A stretch of 64,000 nt of DNA from Actinobacteria bacterium HGW-Actinobacteria-1 (GTDB lineage Bacteria; Actinomycetota; Coriobacteriia; Anaerosomatales; Anaerosomataceae), in contig PHFB01000002.1 of NCBI GenBank assembly GCA_002841355.1, positions 369,414 through 433,413 on the forward strand, read 5' to 3'. Of the stretch, positions 20,407 through 57,640 are shown piece after piece. Both the position numbers and the translations under genes were made by a program. Within the stretch, counting starts at the first letter, position 1, and each line of letters begins with the position of its first letter. Under the pieces are notes generated by a model. That model ran no database searches. It had not been told where the DNA came from and was given only the letters and a program-made list of their open reading frames with translations.

Positions 20407-20482
20407 GCCCCCATCGTCTAGCGGCCAAGGACTCCGCCCTTTCAAGGCGGCAACAGGGATTCGAATTCCCTTGGGGGCACCA
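20407..20482 (+). tRNA. tRNA-Glu (anticodon UUC), insertion target of the element
   Basis: A cloverleaf of 76 bases: acceptor GCCCCCA with TGGGGGC, T arm AGGGA with TTCGAAT and TCCCT, encoded CCA. The anticodon loop is CTTTCAA, anticodon TTC for glutamate. It lies 12 bases after tRNA-Lys. Its 3' half overlaps the end of the integrase gene on the other strand, the usual sign of integration into a tRNA gene with the tRNA left intact. Confidence 0.95.
20442..20482. other. Probable left attachment site (3' half of tRNA-Glu)
   Basis: The segment from the anticodon loop to the encoded CCA is shared by tRNA-Glu and the 3' end of the integrase frame. Tyrosine integrases of this type usually recombine at the anticodon or T-arm of a tRNA gene, so the core is placed here by inference. 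A matching copy, which would mark the right end, was not found by eye within the window. Confidence 0.5.
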
Positions 20483-21737
20483 CGGTTTCGCAGGTCAGAG
20501 GGGGTACGGCCTCCGATTTGTCGCCCGATTTGTCGCCCGATTTGATTTCGATTGCGCCCAAGGCGCCGCTAAACAGGTCGCCAAGGCTGTCGGCCGCTGC
20601 TCTCTGAGTACGGCGATCTGACCAGCAGTACGTGTCCATGGTGTATGCCGAAGAGTGGTGACCGGCGATCTCCTGGACGACCTTCGGGCTGTTTCCCTGT
20701 CTGAGCATGAGCGAGAGCGCAGTGTGGCGCAGATCGTGAAACCTCGGTGCCAGACGCGAGGACTTCCTGAACTCCTGCCAGAGCCACTCGAAACGTGACG
20801 GCCACCAGGGCTCGCCATCCTCCTCAGAGAACACCAGCGGACCATACTCAAGCTGGTAGCCCTCGCCGGCGAGTTCGCGACGTGCCCGGCGATCCTCGTG
20901 TTCGTCCTTTGCGCGTGCCAGCGCAGTTACCAGGATTGCGGGCATCTCGATGGTTCGGCGCGACTTCTCGCTCTTCGGGCCCTTCATCTCGTAGCCGTTT
21001 GCCCCCTCATCCCACGCCCGTACGACCGAGAGTGTGCCACGCACCAGGTCGACGTCATCCCACGACAGCGCGAGGATCTCGCCGCGGCGCATGCCGGTCG
21101 TGACCGCCAACAGCACGGGCAAGTGGAGCCGAGTTCCTTCCACTGCGCTCAACAGCGCAGCGACCTTGTGTTCGCTGAGCACCTCGACTCGATGGCGTTT
21201 GGGCCGCGGCAGTTCAACGCCTCGCTCGGTGTCAGCCGGGTTGAATGCGATCCTGTCCAACTTGACGGCCTGTGAAAGGGCCTTGTGTAGCACTGCATGC
21301 GTCTGAACTACGGTGCGTTCCGACAGCCCGAGTCCGCCGTTCGCCTTGGGTAGCTGCATGCGTGTGTACAGTGCCTGGATGGCCTCTGCGCTCAACTTCT
21401 GAAGGCGCAGCTGTCCCAGTTCGGGCTTCAAGTAGCGTCTGATGATTCCCTGATAGCCCCTGAGTGTCGAGCCCGCCCGTCCGATCGGTGCATAGTCCTT
21501 GATCCATGTGTCGAGCCAGTCGGAGACGCTCTGGCCCTCGGGCTTGACGTACATACCCTTGTCGGCAGAGGTGAGCAGTCGTCTCATTTCCCGCTCGGCC
21601 GCGGACTTCGATCCGGTGAAGTAGTAGTAGTCCCGTTGCCGACTGCCTGCACCGTCTCGACCACGATCAATGGCGATCCGCCACCGATCGCGGACCACCT
21701 TGCCGTTTCTCTTGTAGGGCTGCACGTGACCCTTCAT
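20442..21737 (-). CDS. int: Tyrosine recombinase/integrase of the integrated element
   Basis: A 431-residue phage/ICE-type integrase. The N-terminal part has an AP2-like arm-binding segment with DYYYFTGSK. A SAM-like core-binding domain spans about residues 75-160. The catalytic domain has Arg in TTGMRRGEILAL, the HDLRHTALSLML box (H-x-x-R), His in EIAGHHSSAYT and the nucleophile in MDTYCW. The start at 21737 has GGAGG 10 bases ahead; the frame stays open upstream inside the next gene. Its ATGA overlaps that gene's stop. The TGA stop lies in the tRNA-Glu anticodon loop, so the last 13 codons are antisense to the tRNA. Near the C-terminus a GDKSGDKS duplication is seen. Confidence 0.92.
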   Translation of the reverse strand: MKGHVQPYKRNGKVVRDRWRIAIDRGRDGAGSRQRDYYYFTGSKSAAEREMRRLLTSADKGMYVKPEGQSVSDWLDTWIKDYAPIGRAGSTLRGYQGIIRRYLKPELGQLRLQKLSAEAIQALYTRMQLPKANGGLGLSERTVVQTHAVLHKALSQAVKLDRIAFNPADTERGVELPRPKRHRVEVLSEHKVAALLSAVEGTRLHLPVLLAVTTGMRRGEILALSWDDVDLVRGTLSVVRAWDEGANGYEMKGPKSEKSRRTIEMPAILVTALARAKDEHEDRRARRELAGEGYQLEYGPLVFSEEDGEPWWPSRFEWLWQEFRKSSRLAPRFHDLRHTALSLMLRQGNSPKVVQEIAGHHSSAYTMDTYCWSDRRTQRAAADSLGDLFSGALGAIEIKSGDKSGDKSEAVPPLTCETVVPPREFESLLPP

Positions 21738-22633
21738 TCGCCGGTGCCTCCAGCCACTGTCTGTCGGTGCATCCGTTTGCGGCATCGGTCGCTGCAGGTC
21801 TTCCTGTCGGACCGGGCCTCGGTCGCGTCCCACCAATCGCCGCAGACCGGACAGGGGCGATACTCTCGCTGCCCGTCGACCGCGAGTGCGAACTGCAGCC
21901 ACATAGCTGCGATGAGCGACCGGACCTCGAACGTGAGCCGAAGCCCGCCCGGCTGCGCGCTCGTAACTCGCATGACCACCCGCACGGTCGCGCACATCTC
22001 GGACACGATATTGGCGAGAGCAGCACGAGCCACCACGTCCGGAAGGCTGGCCTTCATGAGCGGCGTGGCGGGCTCGAACTGCTCGTCGAACGTCTTCGGA
22101 GTGGTCAATCCCAGGTCATGCTGCGCGGATGCGGTGCGCGTCCAGACCATGTACTTGGGTGCGGGTTTGCCCGGCTCGACGAGGGAGTCGTACGGCTTCA
22201 CGAGCAGATCCGTACCTATCAACTCGTCAGCCCTTCCTTCGTTGATCGCGTCCCAGAGTCGAACCGCGAAGGCGAGCATCTGGCGGTGCCCCCGCCAGAT
22301 CTGGAGGCTGCGACCCTCCGAGTACACGAGGAACGGGTCACTGCTCGCCATCTCCTCGGCAGTCGCGATGTGGTCGCCCACAACTACCAGACCGCCGCCA
22401 TCGAGATCGCCGTACCTGGCCGCAAACTCCGCGAAGGCAGCTTCGGTGTCGCGTTGATCCGCGAATCTCCGGAATAGCGCCGGCTCGCTCTTCAAGGGCT
22501 GATAGCCGTCATCTGCGGGGTGGCCCGCGAGTAAACGCTGGTTCTTGGGGCCGATCCATCGGCCTTCTGCCATGCGCCACCACTGGAAGTCCACGAGGGC
22601 GGCGGGTGATACCGAGCTGATTCGCGATGTCAC
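21734..22633 (-). CDS. Unknown protein with C-terminal zinc-ribbon
   Basis: A protein of about 299 residues co-transcribed with the integrase by ATGA overlap. The last 35 residues carry CPVCGDWW, then RKTCSDRCRKRMHRQ, a CxxC...CxxxC zinc-binding pattern common in small DNA-binding or treble-clef proteins. The rest is of mixed composition without a recognised domain. The GTG at 22633 is preferred because GGAGGA stands seven bases ahead; an ATG at 22648 has no good site. Position beside int suggests a role in excision or regulation, which is inference. Confidence 0.6.
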   Translation of the reverse strand: MTSRISSVSPAALVDFQWWRMAEGRWIGPKNQRLLAGHPADDGYQPLKSEPALFRRFADQRDTEAAFAEFAARYGDLDGGGLVVVGDHIATAEEMASSDPFLVYSEGRSLQIWRGHRQMLAFAVRLWDAINEGRADELIGTDLLVKPYDSLVEPGKPAPKYMVWTRTASAQHDLGLTTPKTFDEQFEPATPLMKASLPDVVARAALANIVSEMCATVRVVMRVTSAQPGGLRLTFEVRSLIAAMWLQFALAVDGQREYRPCPVCGDWWDATEARSDRKTCSDRCRKRMHRQTVAGGTGE

Positions 22634-28869: not shown

Positions 28870-29319
28870 GTGTCAAACAAGCGTGCGCCTCTGGGAAGCG
28901 CGGGAACGCCGAAGCGCCTGATGATCCGGCTGACGCCGGAGGACTACGACAGGCTCTCGGCCCTGGCGGCCAGCGATGGCGTTGCGATGGCGGTCAAGGG
29001 GCGCGAAGTGATGCTGGCGGGGATGGACCCGCAGATCTTCGGTGAGCGCTACTACGACGTGGAGCGCCTACTGCGAAGCGTCGTCAAAGCCGAGATGGAG
29101 ACGCACTCGGAGCGGCTGCACAAGAGGCTCTATCGGGTCGGCGGTATCACGGTCGCGATGGTGTACTTCGTCCGCGAGGTACTCAGCAGGATCCTCGAAC
29201 TCGATCCGCACGGTGTCACGCAGATGTGGCGAGAGGCGGAGGGTCACGGGTTCAAGTACATGGGTGCGAAGCAGCCCGAATCGATGCCGGACGATGACGG
29301 GCAGGGAAGCGCGCCATGA
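28870..29319 (+). CDS. MobC-like relaxosome accessory protein
   Basis: A 149-residue protein with a ribbon-helix-helix-like start: KRLMIRLTPEDYDRLSALAA. The mid-region is charged and helical with EMETHSERLHKRLYRVGGIT. Such proteins help the relaxase open oriT. Its TGA overlaps the relaxase ATG (ATGA), which strongly supports a shared role. The GTG at 28870 is taken because GGAAGG stands nine bases ahead; upstream in-frame starts are possible. Confidence 0.65.
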   Translation: MSNKRAPLGSAGTPKRLMIRLTPEDYDRLSALAASDGVAMAVKGREVMLAGMDPQIFGERYYDVERLLRSVVKAEMETHSERLHKRLYRVGGITVAMVYFVREVLSRILELDPHGVTQMWREAEGHGFKYMGAKQPESMPDDDGQGSAP

Positions 29320-30836
29320 CACTCGGGCCTCTCGTCGTGAAAGTCAGCTACGCCGCTCCGAGCGCCGGGGACGGCGCGCACGCCACCTACATCGCCACAC
29401 GGCCCGGCACGGACCTGACGGTCACGGCCGACTCCATCGCGCGGATGGTGACTCGCGATATCGCGGACGACGCCACGTACACCCGCTACATCGCCGAGCG
29501 CCCCGGCGTGGTCGCCGACGGCGGGCCCCACGGTCTGTTCGACGAGAACGGCATCCCCGATCTTGCCTCCGTCACCGATGAGCTGGCAGCCCTCTCGCAC
29601 GCCCCGCTCTATCGCGTGATCGTTTCCGTTAGCCGAGCTGACGCCGAGGAGCTTGGCCTGGACTCCAAAGCGCAGTGGGAGCGCCACGTTCGCGCCAGCG
29701 TCGATGCCATGTCCAGGGCTACAGGAATCCCGCGCGAGAACATGCGGTGGGTGGCGGCCCACCACAATCCCGTGGTCGGGCATCCGCACGCGCACATCAT
29801 GCTCTGGGACAGGACCGACAGTCCCGCGTTCAAGCGAGTAGTCCCCCAGCGGCGAGCGGGAGCAGGCCACATACCCGCTCCCCGGCTGAAGGCCCTTCGT
29901 GGGGCGTTCACCCGTGAGATCTACGGCGCAGTGCGCGAGGGTGTGTATGAGGCGAAGGGTCGCGCTCGCTCGGAGATCCGTATGTTCGGCACCACATCCC
30001 TCTCTCTGGCCGTCGAAGAACGCCGGCAGATCGGTGCGGGGCTCGCCCTCCCAGCGGTCTCAGGCCTCACGCGCGATCTGGATGCTCTGTCGCGCACACT
30101 GCCTGGACGCGGCCGGGCTGCATACAAGTACGCCTCACCTGAGACGAAGGCCGCAGTCGATCGGATCGTGGACAAGCTGATGTCGGCGGCGCCGATCGCC
30201 GAGCGGGTCACCGCGTATGCCGATGCGGCCGTGGAGCTCAAACGGCATCACACCGCCGATCCCGATGAGCTTGCATCCGCGCGCGTCAACGCAGAGGCGG
30301 ACGTGCGAGCACGACTGGCTCCCGACGTACTGCAGGCCGCCGTGAGCATCCAGATCTTGAGGACGGACGAAGGCATCATCCGAACTGCTCCGCTGGTGGT
30401 CCGCAACCACTTGCTGCGAGGGGCGCCCGAGCAGACACGTGTGTTCTACGCTCGGGCCCTCATGACTGCGGGGATCGACGAGAACACGGCCGGCAGCGTG
30501 ATGGTCAAGTCGTGTCGGGGCGACGAGCCGATTGAGGCTACGGCGACCCGCATAGCGACCGTCTACGCAGAAGGCCGACCGCTTCGCCCGTCCGAGTGGG
30601 CGGCGTGGCGTAACGAGAACGCGCTCCCCGAGCTCTCGGCAGGGCTGCAGCAGACCGCGGCTACGCTCCACCTGCTCGAGCAGGTGTCACGACATCTGTC
30701 CCCACAGCGCTCGCCGGCGGCCCAGGAGGTTGCACGGATCGACTGGGGCAGGCTCGGACGAGCCACACGCCCGACAGGTCGCGCGGACGGGGGCCGCGGC
30801 ATGACGCTCGACCCACGAGACGGCCTGTCGTCTTAG
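29316..30836 (+). CDS. Conjugative relaxase with histidine triad (MOBP / MobL-like)
   Basis: A 506-residue protein. The relaxase centre is seen at about residues 140-170: NMRWVAAHHNPVVGHPHAHI, where HPHAH gives the metal-binding histidines. An upstream region with YTRYIAERPGVVADGG could hold the nicking tyrosine. The C-terminal 250 residues are helical and Ala-rich with no helicase motifs. It is expected to nick oriT and lead the strand into the type IV channel. It follows the MobC-like gene by ATGA overlap and precedes parA/parB. Confidence 0.8.
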   Translation: MTLGPLVVKVSYAAPSAGDGAHATYIATRPGTDLTVTADSIARMVTRDIADDATYTRYIAERPGVVADGGPHGLFDENGIPDLASVTDELAALSHAPLYRVIVSVSRADAEELGLDSKAQWERHVRASVDAMSRATGIPRENMRWVAAHHNPVVGHPHAHIMLWDRTDSPAFKRVVPQRRAGAGHIPAPRLKALRGAFTREIYGAVREGVYEAKGRARSEIRMFGTTSLSLAVEERRQIGAGLALPAVSGLTRDLDALSRTLPGRGRAAYKYASPETKAAVDRIVDKLMSAAPIAERVTAYADAAVELKRHHTADPDELASARVNAEADVRARLAPDVLQAAVSIQILRTDEGIIRTAPLVVRNHLLRGAPEQTRVFYARALMTAGIDENTAGSVMVKSCRGDEPIEATATRIATVYAEGRPLRPSEWAAWRNENALPELSAGLQQTAATLHLLEQVSRHLSPQRSPAAQEVARIDWGRLGRATRPTGRADGGRGMTLDPRDGLSS

Positions 30837-30920
30837 AAGAACACTCCCGGAAAGGTCGTGCCAATGGCCGCTCGGTACGCTCAAGCGGGTGCTGCCCGCG
30901 AATCGATGAAGGGGACACGA

Positions 30921-31721
30921 ATGCAGAGAACGACCAGGCGGATCGCCATCGCCTCGCAGAAGGGTGGCGTCGGGAAGACGACCACGGCCTGGAATGTCGC
31001 GGCAGGGCTCACCGCCAAAGGACGCAACGTGCTCGTCGTGGATCTCGACGGTCAGTGCCACCTGACCACAGGCGTACTCGGCGCACCGCCGGCGCGAAGC
31101 CTCTGGGACGTGTTGACGGATGGCATGAGCGCTCAAGAGGCCATCGTGCCAGGCTCGGAGTTCGCCCTGCTTGCCGCCTCCGAGATGCTGTCTCGCGCCG
31201 ACTACGATCTCGGCGGTCGACCGGGCCGGGACTTCCTTCTCTCCCGTGCCCTGAAGGGTCGGCGAGATCCAGCAAGCGGCACACGTGCGCCAGGTGTGCA
31301 GGAGGACTACGACTACATCATCTTGGACTGCCCGCCGTCTCTCGGCATCATGACCGCCAACGCGCTCGCCTACGCCAGTGAGGTCATCGTTCCGGTCACA
31401 CCGGGGCTCTTCGCCGTCAGCGGGCTTGGGATGCTGGGCTCTGTCATCGCCGAGACGATCGATGCCGGCGTCAACGAGAACCTCGGAATAGCCGGCATCC
31501 TGCTCACCCAGTACGAGGGTGGGACGGGCCTGCACCGCAGTATCGCGTCAGCCGTCGAGGAGCAGTTCCCCGGGCTGCTCTACCCGCTCGCGATTCGCAA
31601 GAACGTAGCGATTGGCGAGGCGCACGCCGCGGGTCGAAGCGTGCTGTCCTACGCACCGAAGAGTCACGGTGCGGCCGACTACACCGAACTCGTCGAGCAT
31701 CTGATCAGGCAGGAGGGCTAG
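30921..31721 (+). CDS. parA: ParA-type partition ATPase
   Basis: A 266-residue ParA/Soj-family ATPase. Deviant Walker A is KGGVGKTTTAWN at about residues 16-27; Walker A-prime follows in VLVVDLDGQCH, and Walker B in DYIILDCPPSLG. Its C-terminal half has the typical VPVTPGLFAVSGL switch. Family role: positions plasmids or elements with ParB. The ATG at 30921 has AAGGGG eight bases ahead; an in-frame ATG at 30906 is possible. parB begins two bases downstream. Confidence 0.9.
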   Translation: MQRTTRRIAIASQKGGVGKTTTAWNVAAGLTAKGRNVLVVDLDGQCHLTTGVLGAPPARSLWDVLTDGMSAQEAIVPGSEFALLAASEMLSRADYDLGGRPGRDFLLSRALKGRRDPASGTRAPGVQEDYDYIILDCPPSLGIMTANALAYASEVIVPVTPGLFAVSGLGMLGSVIAETIDAGVNENLGIAGILLTQYEGGTGLHRSIASAVEEQFPGLLYPLAIRKNVAIGEAHAAGRSVLSYAPKSHGAADYTELVEHLIRQEG

Positions 31722-31723
31722 GG

Positions 31724-32677
31724 ATGGGGCGACCGAGGATCGAGCGCGGCGCGAAGCAGGGCGATGTGATCAGGGATCGCGTGGCGGCCGTGGCCGCACG
31801 CTCCGCCCGGCCAACCAGTCTGCTCGGCCAGAAGACAGACAGGTCGGTGACCGTGCCCCTCGACCAGCTCCACCCGGACCCGCGCAACAACGAGGTGTTC
31901 GAGCTCGGAGGCATTGAGGATCTGGCGCGCGACATTGAGGCCAATGGGCTGGCCCACTACCCCGTCGTGCGTCCCCATCCCGAGTTCGAGGACGAGTACA
32001 TGATCGTGGCTGGCCATCGCCGCCATGCGGCGCTCTCGCTACTCGTCGAGCAGGGTCACGGTGGGCGCTTCGGGCAGGTGGTCTGCCACCTCGTGCCCTC
32101 CGATGACCTGGACTCCGGCGTACTCATGCTCACCACCAACGTTCGGCAGCGCGACCTTTCCACACTGGAACGCATCCACACGATCGCATTCGCCCAACGC
32201 CTTGTCGCCGAGCTTCGCGAGGCGGGGCGCCTCGAAGCGGGGACGACCACGGACGGCAAGATCGCCGAACTCGTCAACCTCGCGCCACGCACTGTCGCTT
32301 ACTACCGCTCGCTGACCAAGCTCATCGAGGGCCTTCGCGGGATGCTCGACGAACGGCGTATCACGTTCACCACGGCACGCGAGCTCGCGCAACAGCCCGT
32401 TGATGTCCAAGAACGTGTCCTGGCAGAGATCGAGTCGGGGGAAGATGGCGCGCTGAGCGGTGCGCAGGTCGCCGCAATCACGGAGTCGGCGACGGCCAAG
32501 GAACCGACTGTGGCCAAGGCCCCCGATGCCGACAGGCTCATCACCGCGCTGGAACGAGCCGCCGAGAAGGTCTCGAACCTAGAGCAGACCACGCCAGACG
32601 AGATCGCCACGTTCACTCCACGCATCGCCGCCGTTGCCGATCTCCTGGACGCCATCACTGCCAAGAGAGGGGTCTAG
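31724..32677 (+). CDS. parB: ParB-type partition protein
   Basis: A 317-residue ParB/Spo0J-type protein. The N-terminal nuclease-like/CTPase domain includes VPLDQLHPDPRNNE and MIVAGHRRHAAL (GERR-like box), and then LMLTTNVRQRDLSTLERIHT. A helix-turn-helix follows with IAELVNLAPRTVAYYRSLTK. The C-terminal 100 residues are helical and probably dimerise. Starts 2 bases after parA, so it is one operon. A ParA/ParB pair on an integrative element suggests a replicating circular stage that needs to be kept. Confidence 0.9.
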   Translation: MGRPRIERGAKQGDVIRDRVAAVAARSARPTSLLGQKTDRSVTVPLDQLHPDPRNNEVFELGGIEDLARDIEANGLAHYPVVRPHPEFEDEYMIVAGHRRHAALSLLVEQGHGGRFGQVVCHLVPSDDLDSGVLMLTTNVRQRDLSTLERIHTIAFAQRLVAELREAGRLEAGTTTDGKIAELVNLAPRTVAYYRSLTKLIEGLRGMLDERRITFTTARELAQQPVDVQERVLAEIESGEDGALSGAQVAAITESATAKEPTVAKAPDADRLITALERAAEKVSNLEQTTPDEIATFTPRIAAVADLLDAITAKRGV

Positions 32678-34185: not shown

Positions 34186-35106
34186 TTGCGGTTCGTTCGT
34201 TCAGGAGTGGCGACAGTGATCGCGGCGCTGGTCTTCTGCGCGCCTGCGTTCGGCGCGGATGTGCCAGTGACTCGTGAGGTCATCGGTGTAGCAGAGCCCG
34301 ATGACGCGCTGTTCGCGTCGTCGGTCGAGGAGAGCGGCACGGTCTATGTGCTCGACACGATCGAGTGGGCGGCGCGGCTCGAATGCGACCGGAGCGTCTG
34401 GCACGAGGTCGAGTACGACTTCGGTGCGCAGGTAGGCCCGGTGGAGCCGCCCGCCACGCTCGCGGCGCTCTACCACGACCAGGTAACGCGGGTCACGGTC
34501 GACGCGTTGCTTCGCTTCGAGCGGTTAGTGAGCGCCGGCGCGTCGACGCGCGGTCGGGAGATCGAAGTCTTCGTTCACACGAGCTACGACACTGCGGCCT
34601 ACGAGCTCGCGCCGGGGGTGCTGGTCCGCTTCGATGCGCCAACGCCACAGATCTCCGGTGCTGAGGTCTCTCGGGCACTCCTCGAGGCGCTGCACTACGA
34701 CCCTGCGGTCTACCGGCTAGTCGATGCCTCATGGACGGGGCCGACTCGCAAGGATGGGGACAAGACCGTCCGCGAGGCGAGCTACACCGTGGAGCGGATC
34801 GCCGAGGTCCAGCGGGCGGTCTACGGCGGGGACGTGGCTCTGCCGGACGTGCTCGTCCACGACGGGATCGCCACCTACCGCGCTCCGTCAGCGGTGGAAG
34901 CTGTGACGAAGACCGCCGCCGCAGCAGTTGAGACGGTCGCAGACGATCCCGCATCGCTCGTGCCGTGGATCGTGGCGGGCGGTGTTGCCGCGACAACGAT
35001 CCTCGGGGCGGTCTTCTACTGGCTGCGCAGACGCCGCCGGGCGCTCGACGCGGATGACACCAGCCTGGAGCCTGGTGACGCTGAACTGGAGGGCGAAGAT
35101 GCGTAA
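34186..35106 (+). CDS. Secreted, C-terminally membrane-anchored protein of unknown function
   Basis: A 306-residue protein with a TTG start behind GGAGGAGGGA and a signal peptide of about 24 residues (VATVIAALVFCAPAFGA). The extracellular part of about 230 residues has no recognised fold. A helix at residues 264-284 (IVAGGVAATTILGAVFYWLR) is followed by an Arg-rich and then acidic tail, the stop-transfer layout of membrane-anchored surface proteins. The gene is first of a three-gene surface module and overlaps the next by eight bases. Confidence 0.6.
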   Translation: MRFVRSGVATVIAALVFCAPAFGADVPVTREVIGVAEPDDALFASSVEESGTVYVLDTIEWAARLECDRSVWHEVEYDFGAQVGPVEPPATLAALYHDQVTRVTVDALLRFERLVSAGASTRGREIEVFVHTSYDTAAYELAPGVLVRFDAPTPQISGAEVSRALLEALHYDPAVYRLVDASWTGPTRKDGDKTVREASYTVERIAEVQRAVYGGDVALPDVLVHDGIATYRAPSAVEAVTKTAAAAVETVADDPASLVPWIVAGGVAATTILGAVFYWLRRRRRALDADDTSLEPGDAELEGEDA

Positions 35107-35821
35107 GCACCCCGTACTGATCTCTGCTGTTCTCACCGCACTCGTGTGTGGGTGTGTGGTCGTGGCTGCATCCATGAGCGCGCCAGGCGCCGGGAACGCC
35201 GAAGCTGCGGCGGGTGCCTCGAAGGATTCCACGTCCCCCGCAATCTGCGGGTATGCGATCTACTGGGACGAGTGGCCGGATACGGTGACAGCGGCCCCTG
35301 CCGGGGTGGCTGAGGCCCCCGAGATGGTCGTGGCCGTCGCGGCGCCTGAGACGTCAGCCCCTGCGGGCGAGACCGGCTCTGCAGGCTCATCGGGCAAGAT
35401 GACTGCGTCGAGTCCGAGCAAGCCCGCTCCGGCGCCCGCCCCGGCACCTACGCCAGCACCCACGCCCGCACCTGCGCCGACACCGCCGCCCGCTCCGGCG
35501 GCACCCGAGGTGATCGGCGGGTACGGCGCGTCAATCGCGAGCTACATCAACCCGTCGGCGACCTACGACAGCGCACTACAAAGCCAGTGCATCGCCCAGG
35601 CGAAGCGCATGGCGCTCGCCTCGGCGCTCTCGCACTCGAGCTACGCGCCGGAGAGCTGCGCCAGCTTCGGTGATGGCATGACAGCGCTCGGTGGGGGTGG
35701 GGGAGGCGTGGCCGGCGCCCTCTACGGTCACTGTCCGCAACTCGGCTCGTCCTCACGCCTTGGCGTGGGGCTCGTGCTCTACAACGGCACGCTCTGGGCT
35801 GTCGCGCAAGGCGGAGAGTAG
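35099..35821 (+). CDS. Secreted Pro/Ala-repeat protein
   Basis: A 240-residue protein starting at ATG 35099 behind GGAGGGCGAAG. A hydrophobic segment at residues 8-29 could be a signal peptide or anchor. Residues about 100-135 are a Pro/Ala/Thr-rich spacer (PAPAPAPTPAPTPAPAP), typical of wall-spanning stalks. The C-terminal 100 residues (ASYINPSATYDSALQSQCIA onward) contain four Cys and a Gly-rich loop, perhaps a CAP-like or other small domain. Not recognised. It is coupled to both neighbours and probably a surface partner of the adhesin-sortase fusion. Confidence 0.6.
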   Translation: MRKHPVLISAVLTALVCGCVVVAASMSAPGAGNAEAAAGASKDSTSPAICGYAIYWDEWPDTVTAAPAGVAEAPEMVVAVAAPETSAPAGETGSAGSSGKMTASSPSKPAPAPAPAPTPAPTPAPAPTPPPAPAAPEVIGGYGASIASYINPSATYDSALQSQCIAQAKRMALASALSHSSYAPESCASFGDGMTALGGGGGGVAGALYGHCPQLGSSSRLGVGLVLYNGTLWAVAQGGE

Positions 35822-35824
35822 CTC

Positions 35825-38794
35825 ATGCACACACGGACGCTCACCACGCGCGCACTCCTCATCCTCGTGCTGCTCTGTGGGTCGGCGGTCGGCCTGCCCG
35901 GCACGGCCTCGGCGGCGACCGTGTCGACGGGCGGCGCGGGGACGTCGTACTACGACGCGTACTACTCAGGCTCGTGGCACGATCTCCAGACGCCGCCGCA
36001 TACGGTCGACGGCCAGGTCGCCTACTGTCTCGAGCAGTCGAAGGACTTCCCCCTCAACAACTCGACGTATGGCCTGTTCGACGTGGCCGCGCTATACAAC
36101 TTCAATACCTACGTTGGCCTGCAGTCCATTCTTCACCGGGGGTACCCGTACGTGACCCCGGCCGGCCTGACCGAGACCCAGGCGCGCTACGCCACCGCGA
36201 ACGCCATCCGTGCGTGGATGCGCGAGTCGGCCGGCGTCGGCTACACATTCATGGACATGAGCACCTACACGCAGGACGCCGCGACGTGGTCGCGCTTGAG
36301 ACCAGCTCCGGGTCTCGGGGGATCCGAGGCGATGTTCCGCTGGACGATCGATCTTGTGACTGGCGCGCGCAACCGCGTGCTTCCGGCCCGGAGCGTGAGC
36401 GCCGCGGCCGTCGCGCTCCGGCCGAACGCGGACTACACGCGGCTTGTCGGCCAGACGACGGTGTCATTCAACGACCTGAACGGCTACTACACGGTCGACG
36501 TGCCGCCGGGTGTGTCGCTCTCGGGCTACACCGGCGGCAACGGAGACGCGCTGACGGTCTCCGTGCCCTGCACCGCAGCCTGGATCGGCCGCTCGGTCTC
36601 GCTCACCCTCTACGGGTACGACAGTCGTGTTCCAGCGAACATCTTCTACTACGCTCCCGGTGACACGTCGTACCAGCGAGTGGTGTCTGCTCAGTCCTCG
36701 AGTTTCCAGGTCGCTGCCTCGGCCGCAGTTCCCGTTGGGTCCGGCTCCGGCGCTTTGCGGATCACCAAGACGGATGTGGTGGATGGTGCGCCGCTGGGTG
36801 GAGCCGTCTTCGAGCTCCTTTGGAACAGCACCGTCGTCGCTTCGGGATCGACGGACGCTGCGGGGGATCTCACGTTCACCGGACTTGCCCCTGGCTCCTG
36901 GACGGTCAGGGAGCAGGCCGCTCCGCAGGGCTACCTGCTCGATGTGACGCCGCATTCAGTCACGGTGCCCGATGGCGGCACGGCTACGCTTAGGCTCACG
37001 AACGAACGTGCCTTGCGGCCAGTGCGCGTCACCAAGACCGACTCGCTCACGGGTGCGGTCCTCGAGGGAGCCGTCTTCGAGATCCGGCAGGGCGCGACGG
37101 TGATCGAGGCGCTCACCACGAACGCGAGCGGGGTTGCCGAGAGCGCCCCACTGCCGTTCGGGGACTACACGCTTGTCGAGACCGTGGCGCCGGCGAGCCA
37201 CATGCTTGACGCCACGCCATATCCGTTCATGATCAACGCGACCTCACCCACGACGATACAGATAGCGCGCACAGACCAGCCCTACCGCCCGGTCACGCTC
37301 ATCAAGACCGACGAGCTCACGGGCACGGTCCTCGAGGGGGCCGTTTTCGAGATCCGCCGAGGGGCCAGCGTCGTGGAAACGCTCACCACGGACGCTAATG
37401 GCACGGCGGCCTCGGCACCCCTTCCCTTCGGCGACTACGAACTCGTGGAAGTGACAGCGCCGGCGGGCTACGTTCTCGATAGCGTCGCGACGACGTTCAC
37501 TGTCGATGCGGCTTCATCTGCGGCATTCGAGTTCTCGCGCACCGATCCCCGTGTGCGCGGCACCGTGCGCTTGGAGAAGCGCTCGGACGGGCAAGACGCA
37601 CGGCTCCTGCCGGGCGCGGTCTACGAGATCTGGCGCGTGCGCGATACATCGCCGCTTGCCGCACCGTTCGATCCGGCCGAGGATCCGACGGATCCGACCG
37701 CGACGTTCACGACCGACGCTGAGGGCGTCGCACAATCTGACCCGCTCGAGTACGGGTGCTACTACGCTGTCGAGACGACCGCGCCTGTCGGCCACGCGCT
37801 CAATCCCACGCGTCACTTCTTTGAGATCCGCGAGGACGAGGCCGTGATCTTCCTTGAGCTCACCGACGACGTACTGCCGGTGAACCATGGCGGGGTGATG
37901 CTGCGGTATCGGAACATCTGGGATGGCACGGAGATCGCCAAGGCGTGGGGCTACAACGCTGAGATCGGCACCGAGTACATGCCGCGTGTCCGGGCCGAAG
38001 GCCTCGACAAGATGCCGATCGAGGGCTTCTCGTACGTGACAGCCGACTACGCACCCCATACCGAGCTCGTCGACGGCAAGCTGCTGGTCACGTACTGGTA
38101 CCGGCAGACCCTTTCCGGGGACTGGCTGAAGGTTCGCACTGGCGATGACGGCCGGGCGCGGCTCACTGCGAAAGACCGCGAGACCTATGGGCTGCTCTCG
38201 GATGCCGAGCTCTACTCCCAGCTCCTCGAGGCGAAGGCTGCGAACCCGGACGTGATCGGCTACCTCTCGATTCCCGGCACTGACCTCCATGAGCCGGTGG
38301 TGCAGACCACGGACAACGTGAACTACCTCACACACGCGGCGGATGGCGATGCCGATGCGCGGGGCGCGATCTTCGCCGACTACCGCTCGCCGCGCTATGC
38401 GGGCGACAGCTCGCGGGCGATGCTGCTCCACGGTCACAACATGCGGGACGGCTCGATGTTCGGAATTCTCGCCTCCTATGGGGACGCGGACTTCTGGGCG
38501 GCGCACCCCTTCATCCAGTACGTCGACGCCGCCGGCAACGGTGGGACGTGGCTCGTCTACTCGGCGCGTGTGGCCGACGGCTCCGACGATGCGTTTACGT
38601 TCCCAGTCATGCGGCCGTACTCGGATCGCATTGCGCGCTGGGCGGATCGCTCGTTCCTGGATCCAGGTTTCCGGCCGGACCCCGCCGGCCGTACGCTTAC
38701 GCTCTCGACGTGCGCGTATCACGTTGAGGATGGCAAGTTGCTTGTCCATGCCGAGCTGATCGAGTGCGACTCGAAGGGCGATGCCGGCAACTGA
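35825..38794 (+). CDS. Thioester-domain-like adhesin with four SpaA-type domains fused to a class B sortase
   Basis: A 989-residue surface protein. Residues 1-31 form a signal peptide. Residues 32-300 resemble a thioester adhesin domain, with Cys68 in VAYCLEQ and a GYPYVTPAG...TETQ segment (Gln119); the helix after it reads YATANAIRAW, where relatives usually have a Gln, so a bond is not certain. Four SpaA-like domains (about 315-680) have isopeptide-type Lys/Glu pairs (RITKTD, RVTKTD, LIKTDE; VREQ, VETV, VEVT). A linker with MLRYRNIWDGTEIAK follows. Residues about 810-985 are a sortase B domain: GYLSIPGTDLHEPVV, LLHGHNM (His871) and TLSTCAY (Cys963). The usual catalytic Arg position is Lys971. 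No LPXTG signal is present. The gene ends in a terminator. Confidence 0.8.
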   Translation: MHTRTLTTRALLILVLLCGSAVGLPGTASAATVSTGGAGTSYYDAYYSGSWHDLQTPPHTVDGQVAYCLEQSKDFPLNNSTYGLFDVAALYNFNTYVGLQSILHRGYPYVTPAGLTETQARYATANAIRAWMRESAGVGYTFMDMSTYTQDAATWSRLRPAPGLGGSEAMFRWTIDLVTGARNRVLPARSVSAAAVALRPNADYTRLVGQTTVSFNDLNGYYTVDVPPGVSLSGYTGGNGDALTVSVPCTAAWIGRSVSLTLYGYDSRVPANIFYYAPGDTSYQRVVSAQSSSFQVAASAAVPVGSGSGALRITKTDVVDGAPLGGAVFELLWNSTVVASGSTDAAGDLTFTGLAPGSWTVREQAAPQGYLLDVTPHSVTVPDGGTATLRLTNERALRPVRVTKTDSLTGAVLEGAVFEIRQGATVIEALTTNASGVAESAPLPFGDYTLVETVAPASHMLDATPYPFMINATSPTTIQIARTDQPYRPVTLIKTDELTGTVLEGAVFEIRRGASVVETLTTDANGTAASAPLPFGDYELVEVTAPAGYVLDSVATTFTVDAASSAAFEFSRTDPRVRGTVRLEKRSDGQDARLLPGAVYEIWRVRDTSPLAAPFDPAEDPTDPTATFTTDAEGVAQSDPLEYGCYYAVETTAPVGHALNPTRHFFEIREDEAVIFLELTDDVLPVNHGGVMLRYRNIWDGTEIAKAWGYNAEIGTEYMPRVRAEGLDKMPIEGFSYVTADYAPHTELVDGKLLVTYWYRQTLSGDWLKVRTGDDGRARLTAKDRETYGLLSDAELYSQLLEAKAANPDVIGYLSIPGTDLHEPVVQTTDNVNYLTHAADGDADARGAIFADYRSPRYAGDSSRAMLLHGHNMRDGSMFGILASYGDADFWAAHPFIQYVDAAGNGGTWLVYSARVADGSDDAFTFPVMRPYSDRIARWADRSFLDPGFRPDPAGRTLTLSTCAYHVEDGKLLVHAELIECDSKGDAGN

Positions 38795-38852: not shown

Positions 38853-38882
38853 GCAGCACCCCGGCCCCCAACGGGGTGCTGC
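38853..38882 (+). terminator. Terminator after the adhesin-sortase gene
   Basis: GCAGCACCCCG (38853-38863) pairs perfectly with CGGGGTGCTGC (38872-38882) around an 8-base loop. It closes the operon running from parA or from 34186. Confidence 0.75.
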
Positions 38883-40799: not shown

Positions 40800-40807
40800 A
40801 GGGGGTC

Positions 40808-41545: not shown

Positions 41546-41561
41546 TACGCTTTAGAGAGAG

Positions 41562-50070: not shown

Positions 50071-51153
50071 CTACGGCGTCGGAGTCATCGCCGACGCATC
50101 CCACGCCGGCCGTCTAATCGACGCAATCGTCGAACTCCGCGCCGATAGCTCCGAGATCTTCACGACGTCGCCCGTGCGCGGCGCATGAACGTACTTGCCC
50201 CCGCCGATGTACATGCCGACGTGGTGGATGTGCCCCGCCTCCCAGAAGATCATGTCGCCGGGCTGGATCTGCGACAGACTCACGCTTGTGCCGAGGGTGT
50301 TCCACATCCCAGACGTCGTGCCCCGGCCTGAGAAGTCCGCGTAGCGCCACATGATCCAGTCCGCGAGACCGGAACAGTCGAAAGTGTCCGGGCCGGTTGC
50401 TCCCCACACGTACGGGCAGCCGAGGACGGACAGGGCAAGCCGCACCGGCGGGAAGTTGACCGCGACGCCTGACTTGTCGAGCTCGCCCAGTACCTCAGGG
50501 GTGAGTGCCGTCGCACCGGGGCCACCGGCACCGTTGAGCCCGGAGGCATCCAGCACCTGCCCGGTCTCGTCAAACGTGCCCAGGATGGCGAGGTAGCGCT
50601 CGGCTGCCTGCCCGGCCTCTGCGCCCGTGAACGCCGCGCCAGCCGGGGCGAGCCTCGGCGCAAGGTCCGCGACCGGTGGGTACGTGCTCGTGGCGAGCAC
50701 CGTGCTCGTGCCCTCGGCTGTGTACGTGTAGGCGATCGAGGAGCGTACGAGGCCGTAGGCGGCCTGAGGATCGGCCTTTGTGAAGTCCTGGTCGCACTGG
50801 ACGGCCGACAGCGCCAGGAGATAGCGCCACGTCGGCAGGTCGAGGTTGGCGTCCACCGCCTTGCCGGCGGGCGCTCCGGCAGTGGCGTCGTCGATAGCGT
50901 CGTTCTGCAGCCGGTTCTCAAGCTCGGCGTAGGTCTTGATCTGCGTCGCAATCGCGGCCGGATCCGTCTGGTGCCCGAACAGGAAGGACGGCACAGACGC
51001 CGCGAACGCGCCGGCGAACGCCGTGCCCATGAAGAGTGCCGCCACCAGCGCGACCCCTGCACCGACGAGAACCTTGCGCTCGATAGACTTCTTGTCGACG
51101 ACGCCGCGCACGGCAGCTGCGGCGATACGCGCGATGGTGAGAGGTTCGGCCAT
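50071..51153 (-). CDS. T4SS-associated NlpC/P60 peptidoglycan hydrolase
   Basis: A 360-residue protein. A membrane helix at residues 27-50 (VLVGAGVALVAALFMGTAFA) is followed by an external region; the C-terminal NlpC/P60 endopeptidase has the catalytic Cys in DTFDCSGLADWIMWR, a GDMIFWEAGHIHHVGMYIGG segment with the active His and KYVHAPRTGD. A lysozyme-like domain may lie at residues 85-210 (LPTWRYLLALSAVQCDQDFT). Such proteins open the wall for the channel. Last gene of the minus-strand transfer operon. Confidence 0.85.
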   Translation of the reverse strand: MAEPLTIARIAAAAVRGVVDKKSIERKVLVGAGVALVAALFMGTAFAGAFAASVPSFLFGHQTDPAAIATQIKTYAELENRLQNDAIDDATAGAPAGKAVDANLDLPTWRYLLALSAVQCDQDFTKADPQAAYGLVRSSIAYTYTAEGTSTVLATSTYPPVADLAPRLAPAGAAFTGAEAGQAAERYLAILGTFDETGQVLDASGLNGAGGPGATALTPEVLGELDKSGVAVNFPPVRLALSVLGCPYVWGATGPDTFDCSGLADWIMWRYADFSGRGTTSGMWNTLGTSVSLSQIQPGDMIFWEAGHIHHVGMYIGGGKYVHAPRTGDVVKISELSARSSTIASIRRPAWDASAMTPTP

Positions 51154-51162
51154 GATGCTCCT

Positions 51163-53031
51163 CTACGCCGCCGGCGTCTTCTCGCTGCTCGTCGATAGGA
51201 GCTGCACCATCTTGGGTGTGCGCTTCACATCGAGGATGCACTTGCGCTGCCCCACCATCAGCAGGCAGCGGCCGACCGCCTTGCGTGCCACGGCGTCCGC
51301 CTCGGCACGCGAGAGGTCGTACAGATCCACGATGTGTGCGAGCTCGCGACCGTCGGCGCCGAAGACGACCTTCGTGCTGGCGTTGTCGAGCACAGCTCGG
51401 CCCTGCCGCTCGATCGCGGGGTCGAGGAAGTCGCTCACGTTCTGCGTGGCGACCATGAGCGCGCCGCCGTACTTGCGGATTCGCTTGGCGAAGTTCTTGA
51501 TCGCCTCGAGAGTCGCTGGCGTCTTGGGGTCGATCGCCAGGTGCGCCTCGTCCATGACGACGAGAAGATGCTCGCCGGTGTCGCGGTTAGCCTGGATCTC
51601 GCGCCACATCAGCTGCGTGATGAGGTGGTACTGCGCCGCGTACGTGGACGAGTCGGCCTCCTGTAGCGCGTGGGTTGAGAACACGAGCACGTCGCTACCG
51701 AGCGTGACGTTCGTCTGTCCGTCCCACATCAGTCCCCGCGAGCCCTCGGTGAGGTTCTTGAAGAACAGATCGAGCCCCGCGTACGCCTCACGCTCGCCGG
51801 CCGACGGCTCGACGGCGGCGTGCACGCGCGAGGCAATCTGGGCGCGCAGATCCGAGAGCGTCGGCCACGCCGTCATGTGACTCACGCTTGTGAGATCCAA
51901 AGTCAGGCCGTGATCTCGATACAGCTCACGGACCTCGATCTCGAGGATCTCGCGCGCAGTGTAGTCGTCGGGGAGTTGCAGGGCGAAGAAGGTCTTCAGG
52001 AACTCAAGGTGCCGAGCCACGGGATTGAAGCGGCCCAGATCGGCCTCTTCCTCGTCGTCGGCCACGGCCTCTGTGGCCCAGACCTCGAGCGGGTTGATGA
52101 CCGTCGCGCCGCTGTTGCCCGCGTCGATCCACTGGCCGTCGATCCGGGCCGAGAGCGCCCGGTATTCGTCCTCAGGGTCGATGATGATGACCTTCGTGCC
52201 GGCCATGTGCTCCATGAGGATGTCGAGCTTCATGAACGTGGACTTGCCGCCGCCGGCGTTGCCGAGCACCACCATGTTCGCGTTGGAGCGGTCGGCGAAG
52301 CCGGAGGAGCCGAACCGCCAGCGGTCGATCACGACGACACCGCCGGTGGTGTCCAGCCCGTAGACCTTGCCGTACCCGTCGTTGATGCCCGCCGCCGAGA
52401 AGGGCGCGGCTGCGGCCAGTGTGCTCGAAGGCATCGGCATCGCGTAGAGCTCGTGCAGCCGCGCGGAGCGATAGCCGTAGGGGCTTGAGTGCAGAATCGC
52501 GTCCTTGGTCATGAACCACGGCCGCTGGGCGATGATCTGGTTCGCCGCGAGTCGGCCCTGCACCCCTTTGACGCGTGAGGTTAGCCCCTCGGCGTTCTCG
52601 GCGGTCACGATGAAGGACACGACCGAGTCGAACATCGCCTGGTTCTCCGAACCGGACAGCCGTAGGAGCTCTGCGGCCTGGTCCCGCTTCGCTGAGGCCT
52701 GCATGCGCTCATACGCACCCTTGTTCTTGCTCTCGGCCTGGAAGCTCCAGCCGGAGAGTGAGTCCGAGACGATGCGGTTGAACTCGGCGGCGCTTCGGCG
52801 CACCGCGTCGATGTGGACGGTCACACCGGGCAGCCGGATGCGCGAGAGCCACTCGGCCGGCAGCCGGGCGGGGTACTTCGTGACCACGAGGACGGCCATG
52901 TACTGGTCACCGAATCTGCATGAGTTCTTGTCCGAGAACTCGGCCACCACTGGCGCGATGAGCTCTCGCAGGCGCGTGTTCGGCAGGATCTGCGTGACCT
53001 GTTCGGTCACTTCGGTCTTCTTGCGGGCCAT
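51163..53031 (-). CDS. VirB4-type T4SS ATPase
   Basis: A 622-residue ATPase. Walker A GNAGGGKSTFMKLDI is at about residue 260 and Walker B HLLVVMDEAHLAIDP near 460. FAKRIRKYGGALMVATQNVSDFLD follows, typical of VirB4/TraC/TraE. It lacks the usual N-terminal CagE-like region, which is in the separate gene at 53051. It powers pilus or channel assembly at the inner face of the membrane. The gene is followed by the NlpC/P60 gene after 9 bases. Confidence 0.92.
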   Translation of the reverse strand: MARKKTEVTEQVTQILPNTRLRELIAPVVAEFSDKNSCRFGDQYMAVLVVTKYPARLPAEWLSRIRLPGVTVHIDAVRRSAAEFNRIVSDSLSGWSFQAESKNKGAYERMQASAKRDQAAELLRLSGSENQAMFDSVVSFIVTAENAEGLTSRVKGVQGRLAANQIIAQRPWFMTKDAILHSSPYGYRSARLHELYAMPMPSSTLAAAAPFSAAGINDGYGKVYGLDTTGGVVVIDRWRFGSSGFADRSNANMVVLGNAGGGKSTFMKLDILMEHMAGTKVIIIDPEDEYRALSARIDGQWIDAGNSGATVINPLEVWATEAVADDEEEADLGRFNPVARHLEFLKTFFALQLPDDYTAREILEIEVRELYRDHGLTLDLTSVSHMTAWPTLSDLRAQIASRVHAAVEPSAGEREAYAGLDLFFKNLTEGSRGLMWDGQTNVTLGSDVLVFSTHALQEADSSTYAAQYHLITQLMWREIQANRDTGEHLLVVMDEAHLAIDPKTPATLEAIKNFAKRIRKYGGALMVATQNVSDFLDPAIERQGRAVLDNASTKVVFGADGRELAHIVDLYDLSRAEADAVARKAVGRCLLMVGQRKCILDVKRTPKMVQLLSTSSEKTPAA

Positions 53032-53050
53032 GAGCGTCCGCCCTTCTTTG

Positions 53051-53665
53051 TCAGACGCCGACGAGCGGCGCGATGTTGAGTGACGGGTCGTCGGAGGGCA
53101 GCGTGACGGCGGGGGAGGGCAGACTGAATCGTACGAACGTATTGATCACGTCGGCCGCGCTCATCCAGCTCGCCGAGATCCCGCGCGTGCCGAGCGTGGC
53201 GATGAAATTGCGGGCCTCCGTGAAGAGGTCGTTTCGCTGTGCGTCGGTCGCTGCCGGTGGCGTCGTGAGGATGAAGAAGAAGTCCCGCTCGGCTGCGTTG
53301 CCCGTGCTCATCAGGTCGGCCACGAACTCGATCTGGTCGGCGATGAGCGTGCGCCGGCCGCTCGTGGCGGCCCTCTCCATGAGGCTGCGCAGGTGGTTCA
53401 TCTGCTCTTCGAGGTCGGCCGCGCGAGGGCCGATGTAGATCCGCACGCCCACGGTGAGTGAGTTGTACGCCGCCTGAAAGGCGTCGAAGTTCGCCGCCAC
53501 ACCGCCAGCGTCCTTGAGCGTCATGTCTTGCGGCTGCACCCGCAGATGCACGGCGTAGGTGCCGTCGGTGAGAAGCGTGTAGTCGCCGGCGGGTGATCTG
53601 AGCACGTCGGAGACGGGGATCAGGTCCGCCATCGTGTCTGCCGGTGACATCTTAGGTCTGAGCAT
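53051..53665 (-). CDS. VirB4 N-terminal-domain-like T4SS protein
   Basis: A 204-residue protein. PVSDVLRSPAGDYTLLTDGT, followed by FDAFQAAYNSLTVGVRIYIG, and RDFFFILTTPP resemble the TraC/CagE-like N-terminal domain of VirB4 homologues. It lies immediately before the ATPase part and overlaps the PrgI-like gene by 14 bases. The start at 53665 is used; internal ATGs at 53650 and 53632 lack better sites. In many Gram-positive elements the domain is fused; here it is separate. Confidence 0.75.
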   Translation of the reverse strand: MLRPKMSPADTMADLIPVSDVLRSPAGDYTLLTDGTYAVHLRVQPQDMTLKDAGGVAANFDAFQAAYNSLTVGVRIYIGPRAADLEEQMNHLRSLMERAATSGRRTLIADQIEFVADLMSTGNAAERDFFFILTTPPAATDAQRNDLFTEARNFIATLGTRGISASWMSAADVINTFVRFSLPSPAVTLPSDDPSLNIAPLVGV

Positions 53666-54002
53666 CGGTGATTCCGCCCTTCTCGATCTTGAGGTAGTAG
53701 CGCTTGGGCTCGCGGACCCAGCGCAGTGAGTTCTTGAGGAAGTCGGCCACCGTCACGTCGGCGACCGAATCGGTCACAAGCCCCCAGCCGGTCATGATCC
53801 AGAGCCCCGCCGCGAGCAGCCCGACGAACACGACCCGCGTGGCGATCGCCGCGACGATCGCGGCGAGAGGGGCGGTGCCGAGCACGTAGTACATGTAGAT
53901 CTGGTTGTGCCTCGGCACGTTGGGGGTGAGCACCTGCTTGCCAAGCGCCACGCGCGACGGGGCCAGATAGCCCTCGCGCTGCTCTTCTTCTGCTGTCGCC
54001 AC
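53652..54002 (-). CDS. PrgI/VirB3-like T4SS membrane protein
   Basis: A 116-residue protein with a GTG start behind AGGAGG. Two hydrophobic helices at about residues 43-62 and 63-80 follow a short cytoplasmic segment (PSRVALGKQVLTPNVPRHNQ). The C-terminal segment REPKRYYLKIEKGG is typical of PrgI-family proteins. It probably contacts the VirB4 ATPase encoded directly after it. Confidence 0.7.
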   Translation of the reverse strand: MATAEEEQREGYLAPSRVALGKQVLTPNVPRHNQIYMYYVLGTAPLAAIVAAIATRVVFVGLLAAGLWIMTGWGLVTDSVADVTVADFLKNSLRWVREPKRYYLKIEKGGITDAQT

Positions 54003-54014
54003 GTCCGGGGCCTC

Positions 54015-54248
54015 CTATCGGAACAACTGAGCGATCGCGGCGAGGATGCCGCCGGATAACACGAGAGAGATCAGGGCTGCGGCCATGACCGGTCGTGCGA
54101 TCGTCCAGAGACTCGGCCGCGTCTCGCCGGGGGAGAGGACCGCCTTGATCGCCGAGACACCAGCGCGCGCAATCGCCGAGACGCTGACCACGCCGAGGAA
54201 CACCGCCGACCACCCGAGCACCGTGTTTGCCGCCGTTTGTTGGGCCAC
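54015..54248 (-). CDS. Small two-helix T4SS-linked membrane protein
   Basis: A 77-residue protein (MAQQTAANTVLGWSAVFLGV at the start, GTG codon). Two hydrophobic segments at about residues 10-32 and 52-74 with an SPGETRPSLW loop between them. Position and size fit a VirB2/VirB3-like inner membrane part. Not recognised by sequence. Confidence 0.55.
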   Translation of the reverse strand: MAQQTAANTVLGWSAVFLGVVSVSAIARAGVSAIKAVLSPGETRPSLWTIARPVMAAALISLVLSGGILAAIAQLFR

Positions 54249-54250
54249 GG

Positions 54251-55141: not shown

Positions 55142-55148
55142 GAGGGCT

Positions 55149-55484
55149 CTAGCCGAACTGCGTGATGAGGAACGGCACGAGCCACGGCAGCACGGCGAAT
55201 GCGACGCACAGGGCGAGCAGGCCCCAGAACTGCTGCCAGCGCTGTCGACGCATGTGCTCGTCTTGCGTGAGCACCGCCATGGTGATGAGCACGCCGCCGC
55301 CGATGACCGCGATCGTGGCGAAGATGAGCGTCACGCCCGTCTGTACCTGCTTGGCAAGCGTGTCGACCTTGGCGAAGAACCCGGTAATGTCTGTAACGGC
55401 GAGCGCGACCGTGGGCGTCGCCGCGGCCAGCGCGAACGTCGCGGCCACCAGCGCGGCGCGGCCCTTCTGGTGCAGTCCCCTCAT
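55149..55484 (-). CDS. VirB2/TrbC-like pilin candidate
   Basis: A 111-residue protein with a signal-like N-terminus (AALVAATFALAAATPTVALA) and two further hydrophobic segments, VQTGVTLIFATIAVIGGGVL and FWGLLALCVAFAVLPWLVPF. This is the size and layout of VirB2-type pilins. The start at 55484 has GAAGGAGAGTGGAG upstream; an earlier ATG at 55514 lies within the preceding gene's end. Confidence 0.65.
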   Translation of the reverse strand: MRGLHQKGRAALVAATFALAAATPTVALAVTDITGFFAKVDTLAKQVQTGVTLIFATIAVIGGGVLITMAVLTQDEHMRRQRWQQFWGLLALCVAFAVLPWLVPFLITQFG

Positions 55485-55510
55485 CGCTCCACTCTCCTTC
55501 GTCGAGTCCC

Positions 55511-57481: not shown

Positions 57482-57640
57482 GTGCACCTCCTGACCTCAG
57501 CGTCTTGTAGCGGGCTGGGGTGGAAGCTAGCACAGGAGGCCGGCGGTCTCGGACTTTGTGGTTGAGTTCGCAGCTATCTCTGCGCCAAGGCCGCCGTAGG
57601 GGCGTAGAGTAATCGGTCTGGACGGCTATCACGCGAGGCA

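What the first reader, a model, noticed from the sequence alone, without database searches (positions are those of the whole stretch)
35825..38794. Adhesin and sortase in one polypeptide carried by a conjugative element
One secreted protein joins a thioester-domain-like head, four SpaA-type domains and a class B sortase domain at its C-terminus (His871, Cys963). There is no LPXTG signal and the expected sortase Arg is Lys971. Sortases and their adhesin substrates are normally separate proteins. The fusion may anchor itself, or the domain may be a non-catalytic binder. In a conjugative element it may serve as a mating-contact adhesin.
Basis: partly seen in the sequence, partly recalled or inferred. 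Interest (0 to 1): 0.7.

Follow-up and report, generated by a model that had tools for sequence, protein, structure and literature searches.

The report
Adhesin fused to its anchoring enzyme
A mobile DNA element of uncultured Coriobacteriia carries one secreted protein that joins a sticky thioester head, a stalk and a wall-anchoring enzyme (sortase) whose catalytic arginine is always a lysine; it probably holds donor and recipient cells together while DNA is transferred.

Summary
ORF 35825-38794 (+, 989 aa) encodes a signal peptide, a class II thioester domain (TED), four SpaA domains, a MucBP-like segment and a class B sortase domain, without sorting signal or further membrane segment. The same uninterrupted fusion occurs in six other genomes (55-91% identity; three more are cut by contig ends), so it is not an artefact. 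Among 75 class B sortase domains His and Cys are invariant; the third catalytic position is Arg in 65 of 65 outside this family and Lys in 10 of 10 inside. The sortase is under strong purifying selection. The head keeps both thioester residues (Cys68, Gln284) and matches B. anthracis TIE (6fwv). The gene is core to an integrative conjugative element (integrase, MobP3, ParAB, VirB4, TrbL, VirD4); only the cargo behind it varies. The closest functional model is TIEpLS20, a class II TED adhesin needed for pLS20 conjugation, whose wall attachment is unknown. Most likely this is a mating-contact adhesin whose sorting signal was replaced by a sortase domain. Whether that domain catalyses is undecided. 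Clostridial contigs hold another TED-SpaA-sortase B fusion, with Arg and an ordinary sorting signal between the parts.

The parts
35825..38794 (+). adhesin-sortase B fusion gene, 989 aa
   Evidence: homologues
35825..35917 (+). signal peptide (aa 1-31, ...GTASA|AT), the only hydrophobic segment long enough to span a membrane
   Evidence: sequence; hydropathy scan
35918..36739 (+). class II thioester domain (aa 32-305)
   Evidence: Pfam TED; profile hit to BaTIE 6fwv E=1.2e-32 over TED plus CnaB; Foldseek 6fwv E=3.8e-15 from a low-confidence model
36026..36028 (+). Cys68, thioester cysteine in YCLE
   Evidence: aligned with BaTIE Cys71; motif from PMC4450167 and PMC6194298; invariant in 8 sequences
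36674..36676 (+). Gln284, likely thioester glutamine in YQRVV
   Evidence: invariant; within one residue of BaTIE Gln266 in the profile alignment
36746..37876 (+). four SpaA/CnaB stalk domains (aa 308-396, 398-486, 487-576, 578-684), each with a Lys/Glu/Asn-or-Asp isopeptide triad (K315/E363/N393; K404/E452/D484; K494/E542/D574; K585/E650/D681)
   Evidence: Pfam SpaA; residues read from the sequence
37877..38119 (+). MucBP-like segment (aa 685-765); no HMM hit, low-confidence model
   Evidence: by eye
38132..38152 (+). VxTGDDG (aa 770-776), conserved island where a sorting motif would lie; degenerate
38225..38764 (+). class B sortase domain (aa 801-980)
38435..38437 (+). His871
38711..38713 (+). 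Cys963
38735..38737 (+). Lys971, in the place of the catalytic Arg
38853..38882 (+). 11-bp hairpin after the gene, possible end of the operon
   Evidence: z -2.8
34186..35106 (+). orf306, secreted protein with C-terminal membrane segment and Arg-rich tail; co-conserved with the fusion
35099..35821 (+). orf297 (probable start 35099), secreted, CAP/SCP-like by eye; co-conserved
29316..30836 (+). MobP3 relaxase
   Evidence: NCBIfam NF041499 over cut-off
30858..32677 (+). ParA and ParB-like genes
20442..21995 (-). tyrosine integrase next to tRNA-Glu (20407-20482)
50071..57487 (-). transfer genes: NlpC/P60, VirB4/TraG-like, TrbL, VirD4

Best explanation
It is a mating-contact adhesin of an integrative conjugative element. 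Shown by sequence: signal peptide, class II TED with both thioester residues, SpaA stalk with isopeptide triads, C-terminal class B sortase domain with His and Cys but Lys for Arg, core position in the element. Inferred: the exported protein stays on the donor through its C-terminal sortase domain, which takes the place of the sorting signal of an ordinary TIE adhesin, and the TED at the far end of the stalk bonds covalently to the recipient (or to nearby cells), stabilising the mating pair. The conserved Cys and His make a covalent attachment of the domain (acyl-enzyme type, to an envelope partner or wall precursor) more likely than a purely passive fold; this last step is the least certain.
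For: Head and stalk match BaTIE 6fwv, with Cys68 and Gln284 invariant. A class II TED adhesin without sorting signal, TIEpLS20, is required for efficient conjugation, about 1000-fold in liquid (PMC8092201). The fusion is syntenic with relaxase and ParAB in the relatives while the cargo behind it changes; in a diverged element with a 34% identical relaxase the orf306-orf297-fusion cassette is kept at 46-53%. The sortase domain is class B: VIA Z 17-22 against at most 12.6 for other classes. Its dN/dS is 0.07-0.20, and 0.16 against the most distant member, the lowest of all regions there; Cys and His are invariant, with a synonymous codon change at the Cys. The nearest unfused head homologue, L127, ends in LRTGD plus membrane segment plus KKFR, a sorting signal where ours has the sortase. 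The nearest free-standing sortase relative, L031, overlaps the end of a VPQTG surface-protein gene, which suggests how the fusion could arise.
Against: No experiment; no transfer shown. No known substrate, membrane anchor or sorting signal, so how the domain holds the donor wall is not explained. Arg is important in other sortases (R200A in PMC13257024, R243A tested in PMC11987632), and I found no report on Lys at this position. The AlphaFold model of the head was poor (pLDDT 59). A TED could target something other than the recipient cell.
Confidence: 0.6

Rival explanations
1. Non-catalytic binder: with Lys in place of Arg the sortase domain has lost transpeptidation and only binds a sorting motif or a peptidoglycan precursor, and so docks the adhesin on the wall.
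For: Arg absent in 10 of 10 family members and present in 65 of 65 others; no substrate in the element; no membrane anchor.
Against: Cys and His are invariant over dS of about 1.4, and the domain is among the most constrained of the protein; a pure binder would not need the Cys.
Confidence: 0.25
2. Self-anchoring enzyme: the sortase domain attacks the VxT|GDDG site upstream of itself (or of a sister molecule) and transfers the adhesin part to the wall; enzyme and substrate are one chain.
For: VxTGDDG is a conserved island (6 of 7 positions invariant against 0.42-0.49 around it) at the place where the Clostridial fusion has VPQTGDD and the unfused homologue L127 has LRTGD.
Against: No Pro of the sorting motif, no hydrophobic segment after it; the conservation rests on one distant sequence (L015); the geometry was not modelled.
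Confidence: 0.2
3. Ordinary sortase delivered on an adhesin: the domain acts in trans on other surface proteins of donor or recipient, for example cross-linking pilin-like proteins.
For: Some class B sortases build pili (Spy0129, PMC3019223); the fold is fully class B.
Against: No sorting-signal protein in this element or in eight stretches of related elements; the protein is not membrane-held.
Confidence: 0.12
4. Frameshift, assembly error or chance join of two genes.
For: None found.
Against: Same fusion, uninterrupted, in genomes from different projects at 55-91% identity.
Confidence: 0.01

Closest known systems
TIEpLS20 (p34) of Bacillus subtilis plasmid pLS20
   Same: class II TED head, CnaB stalk, signal peptide, no sorting signal, encoded in a conjugative element
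   Different: no sortase domain; C-terminus with unknown attachment; Firmicutes plasmid
BaTIE (6fwv) and other sortase-anchored TIE proteins
   Same: TED plus CnaB architecture, Cys/Gln thioester pair, profile E=1.2e-32
   Different: carry an LPXTG-type sorting signal and use a separate sortase
Class B sortases (Listeria, B. anthracis, S. aureus, C. difficile SrtB; Spy0129)
   Same: fold, His and Cys, Cys+8 spacing as in C. difficile SrtB
   Different: free-standing, N-terminal membrane anchor, catalytic Arg; here Lys, no anchor, C-terminal domain of a 989-aa adhesin
Clostridial TED-SpaA(9)-VPQTG-TM-sortase B polyproteins (L072, L073, L074, L076; DUF4366-like gene upstream by eye)
   Same: TED, SpaA stalk and sortase B in a single ORF
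   Different: about 1640 aa, ordinary sorting signal and membrane segments between the parts, Arg present, separate sortase clade, although a single origin is not rejected (AU p=0.33)

Membership tests
class B sortase | class B fold | tested here: met
   Foldseek and VIA: class B sortases first, Z 17-22 vs at most 12.6 for others
class B sortase | catalytic His and Cys in TLxTC context | tested here: met
   His871, LTLSTC963
class B sortase | catalytic Arg | tested here: not met
   Lys971 in 10 of 10 members; Arg in 65 of 65 other domains
class B sortase | N-terminal membrane anchor of the enzyme | tested here: not met
   the only hydrophobic segment is the predicted-cleavable signal peptide
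class B sortase | transpeptidase activity | not testable with these tools
   needs purified protein
TIE adhesin with class II TED | [YFL]C(hydrophobic)(hydrophilic) cysteine motif | tested here: met
   Y67 C68 L69 E70; Phe instead of Tyr in L015
TIE adhesin with class II TED | thioester Gln in a weak (hydrophobic)Q(hydrophilic)(hydrophobic)2 motif about 200 residues on | tested here: met
   YQ284RVV, invariant Gln; one residue off BaTIE Gln266 in the profile alignment
TIE adhesin with class II TED | beta-sandwich insert of class II | tested here: inconclusive
   best match is the class II protein 6fwv, but the head model has low confidence
TIE adhesin with class II TED | TQxx(hydrophobic)W helix motif (usual, not essential) | tested here: not met
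   TANAIRAW in all fusions; Gln present in L027; papers say it is not needed for the bond
TIE adhesin with class II TED | formation of thioester and isopeptide bonds | not testable with these tools
   needs mass spectrometry
integrative conjugative element | integrase, relaxase, coupling protein, VirB4 and channel gene | tested here: met
integrative conjugative element | defined ends, excision and transfer | not testable with these tools
   ends not mapped; no exact repeat of 16 or more bases of the tRNA region elsewhere in the window

The most novel reading that the evidence does not exclude
A self-contained covalent mating adhesin: one polypeptide that bonds itself to the donor envelope through a Lys-type sortase active site (possibly at its own VxT-GDDG site) and to the recipient through a thioester, needing no host anchoring enzyme.
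Probability: 0.2. Interest if true: 0.82.

Novelty: new variant of a known kind. Interest (0 to 1): 0.58.

Why it matters
How Gram-positive conjugation adhesins are fixed to the donor is an open question stated for TIEpLS20. This family offers an answer that can be tested: the anchoring enzyme itself is the anchor. A whole clade of sortase domains with invariant His and Cys but Lys for Arg also tests whether the arginine is indispensable for sortase chemistry. An adhesin that brings its own attachment could let an element transfer between hosts without relying on host sortases.

Tried and rejected
Loss of the thioester was considered because the TQxA glutamine is Ala125; rejected, since the papers show that this Gln is not the bond-forming one and the real pair (Cys68, Gln284) is kept. 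A sorting-signal substrate within the element was sought and not found. IMG/VR scans with single sequences of the head and of the sortase found no relative; a phylum sample gave only the window's own genome at E 1e-20. Frameshift or assembly artefact rejected. A single origin with the Clostridial fusions is neither supported nor rejected. Long-frame class B sortases elsewhere in the class (L087, L088, L090, L109) are not SpaA fusions. The phage record MT835495 and the Niallia megaplasmid have a large upstream ORF and a sortase ORF side by side, not fused. Literature searches found no description of a TED-SpaA-sortase fusion; the library is open-access only.

Full report
Observation. The open frame 35825-38794 (+) encodes 989 residues. 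It starts just after the preceding gene (orf297) ends, with GGAGAG in front, and is followed by an 11-bp hairpin at 38853-38882, so it looks like the last gene of an operon. Pfam finds four SpaA domains (E=3.8e-70), a Sortase domain at 814-978 (3.2e-8) and a TED match just over its cut-off. A sequence search of the PDB with the C-terminal part returns class B sortases, and Lys971 lies opposite the catalytic Arg.

Not an artefact. The same uninterrupted fusion is present in six other genomes: L003 (= G111), L005 (= G057), L006 (= G043), L008 (= G077), L019 (G125) at 86-91% identity, and L015 (G069) at 55%. Partial copies cut by contig ends are in three more (L004, L007/L009, L014). The equation of the two collections rests on equal contig lengths. 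The carriers belong to several genera and at least three families of one order in the class panel, in a patchy pattern, as expected of a mobile element. The number of SpaA domains varies (three in L005, L006, L008 and L019; four in the window and L003).

Head. I first thought that the head had lost its thioester because the TQxA motif reads TANAIRAW. Two papers (PMC4450167, PMC6194298) show that this Gln is not the bond-forming one. The pair that matters is kept: Y67-C68-L69-E70 and Y283-Q284-R285-V286-V287; Cys and Gln are invariant in eight sequences, including L027 at 31% identity. A profile of the family hits B. anthracis TIE (6fwv) at E=1.2e-32 (TED and CnaB parts together); Cys68 aligns with its Cys71, and Gln284 falls within one residue of its Gln266 (numbering worked out by hand). 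Foldseek with the low-confidence AlphaFold model (pLDDT 59) also ranks 6fwv first. The head is therefore most likely a working class II TED; the beta-sandwich insert itself was not shown with confidence.

Stalk. Each SpaA domain has a Lys, a Glu and an Asn or Asp at the isopeptide positions (read from the sequence). Between stalk and sortase lies a segment (685-765) that resembles MucBP by eye, without an HMM hit and with a low-confidence model.

Sortase domain. The model of this domain is good (most ten-residue blocks between pLDDT 76 and 95, two loops at 65-69) and matches class B sortases at Z 17-22, all other sortase classes at 12.6 or less. In 75 class B domains from the class and from IMG/VR, His and Cys are invariant; the third position is Arg in all 65 domains outside the family and Lys in all 10 inside. 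The Cys-to-Lys spacing of 8 equals C226-R234 of C. difficile SrtB (PMC4371152). The Lys clade has support 98/92; its sister is L021, an N-terminally truncated copy at 52% identity that has Arg (100/99). L021 lies next to a relative of this element's orf202, so Arg was probably replaced by Lys within this element family. Sortase dN/dS is 0.07-0.20, among the lowest of the domains, and against the most distant member it is the lowest (0.16 against 0.19-0.38); Cys963 shows a synonymous change (TGC/TGT) in L015. This is constraint, not decay.

Context. The window holds an integrative conjugative element next to tRNA-Glu: integrase, MobP3 relaxase, ParA, ParB, NlpC/P60, VirB4, TrbL and VirD4. The block relaxase-ParA-ParB-orf378-orf103-orf306-orf297-fusion is kept in the relatives, and between the fusion and NlpC/P60 the window's cargo genes are absent from them; here the slot holds an Eco57I-like methyltransferase gene and QatA, QatC and QatD with a gene in the QatB position. 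In the diverged element of G069 the relaxase is only 34% identical while orf306, orf297 and the fusion are 46-53% identical, a three-gene surface cassette. The fusion is thus core, not cargo.

How it probably works. TIEpLS20, a class II TED adhesin with CnaB stalk and no sorting signal, is required for efficient pLS20 conjugation (about 1000-fold in liquid, 15-fold on solid medium); a point change predicted to prevent the thioester inactivates it, and its wall attachment is unknown (PMC8092201). The present protein has the same head, stalk and kind of context. The closest unfused head relative (L127) ends in LRTGD, a membrane segment and KKFR, that is, a sorting signal. The closest free-standing sortase relative (L031) overlaps the end of a VPQTG surface-protein gene. 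The simplest history is that an adhesin gene and its neighbouring sortase gene fused and the sorting signal and membrane segments were lost. The simplest function is that the sortase domain now fixes the adhesin to the donor and the TED takes hold of the recipient. That the domain still does Cys chemistry is inferred from conservation; it is not shown. A conserved VxTGDDG island at 770-776 could be a relic of a sorting motif or a site of self-processing; the evidence is thin.

Relation to known things. In Clostridial contigs L072, L073, L074 and L076 a single ORF of about 1640 aa holds TED, nine SpaA domains, VPQTG plus membrane segment plus basic tail, a second membrane segment and an Arg-bearing sortase B. 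Adhesin-sortase fusion is thus a recurring theme; the Coriobacteriia form is the one without sorting signal and with Lys. A single origin is not rejected (AU p=0.33). I found no paper describing either form, with the limit that only an open-access library was searched. Membership: by fold it is a class B sortase domain, but two usual features (Arg, membrane anchor) were tested and not met, so it should be called sortase-B-like until activity is shown. As a TIE adhesin it fits on the motifs tested.

Noticed in passing
window 39156-50042: The cargo slot behind the fusion carries an Eco57I-like methyltransferase gene and a Qat defence system (QatA, QatC and QatD by PADLOC, QatB by position).
   Followed up: partly
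L089 2741-4780 (-), L033 1471-3015 (-): Signal peptidase I-like domain (by eye) joined to a class B sortase in one ORF in other Coriobacteriia, another sortase fusion.
   Followed up: no
L072 588-5549, L073 615-5537, L074 597-5543: Clostridial TED-SpaA-sorting signal-sortase B polyproteins of about 1640 aa; enzyme and ordinary substrate site in one chain.
   Followed up: partly
L021 954-2124 (G147:C161): Remnant of a related element: truncated Arg-bearing sortase about 430 bases after a tRNA-Val gene, followed by a relative of orf202.
   Followed up: partly
window 34186-35821: orf306 (secreted, C-terminal membrane segment, RRRRR tail) and orf297 (CAP/SCP-like by eye) travel with the fusion even in a diverged element; no Pfam match for either.
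   Followed up: partly
window 57704-60040: 778-aa protein with weak Ppl- and AAA-type defence matches next to VirD4.
   Followed up: no
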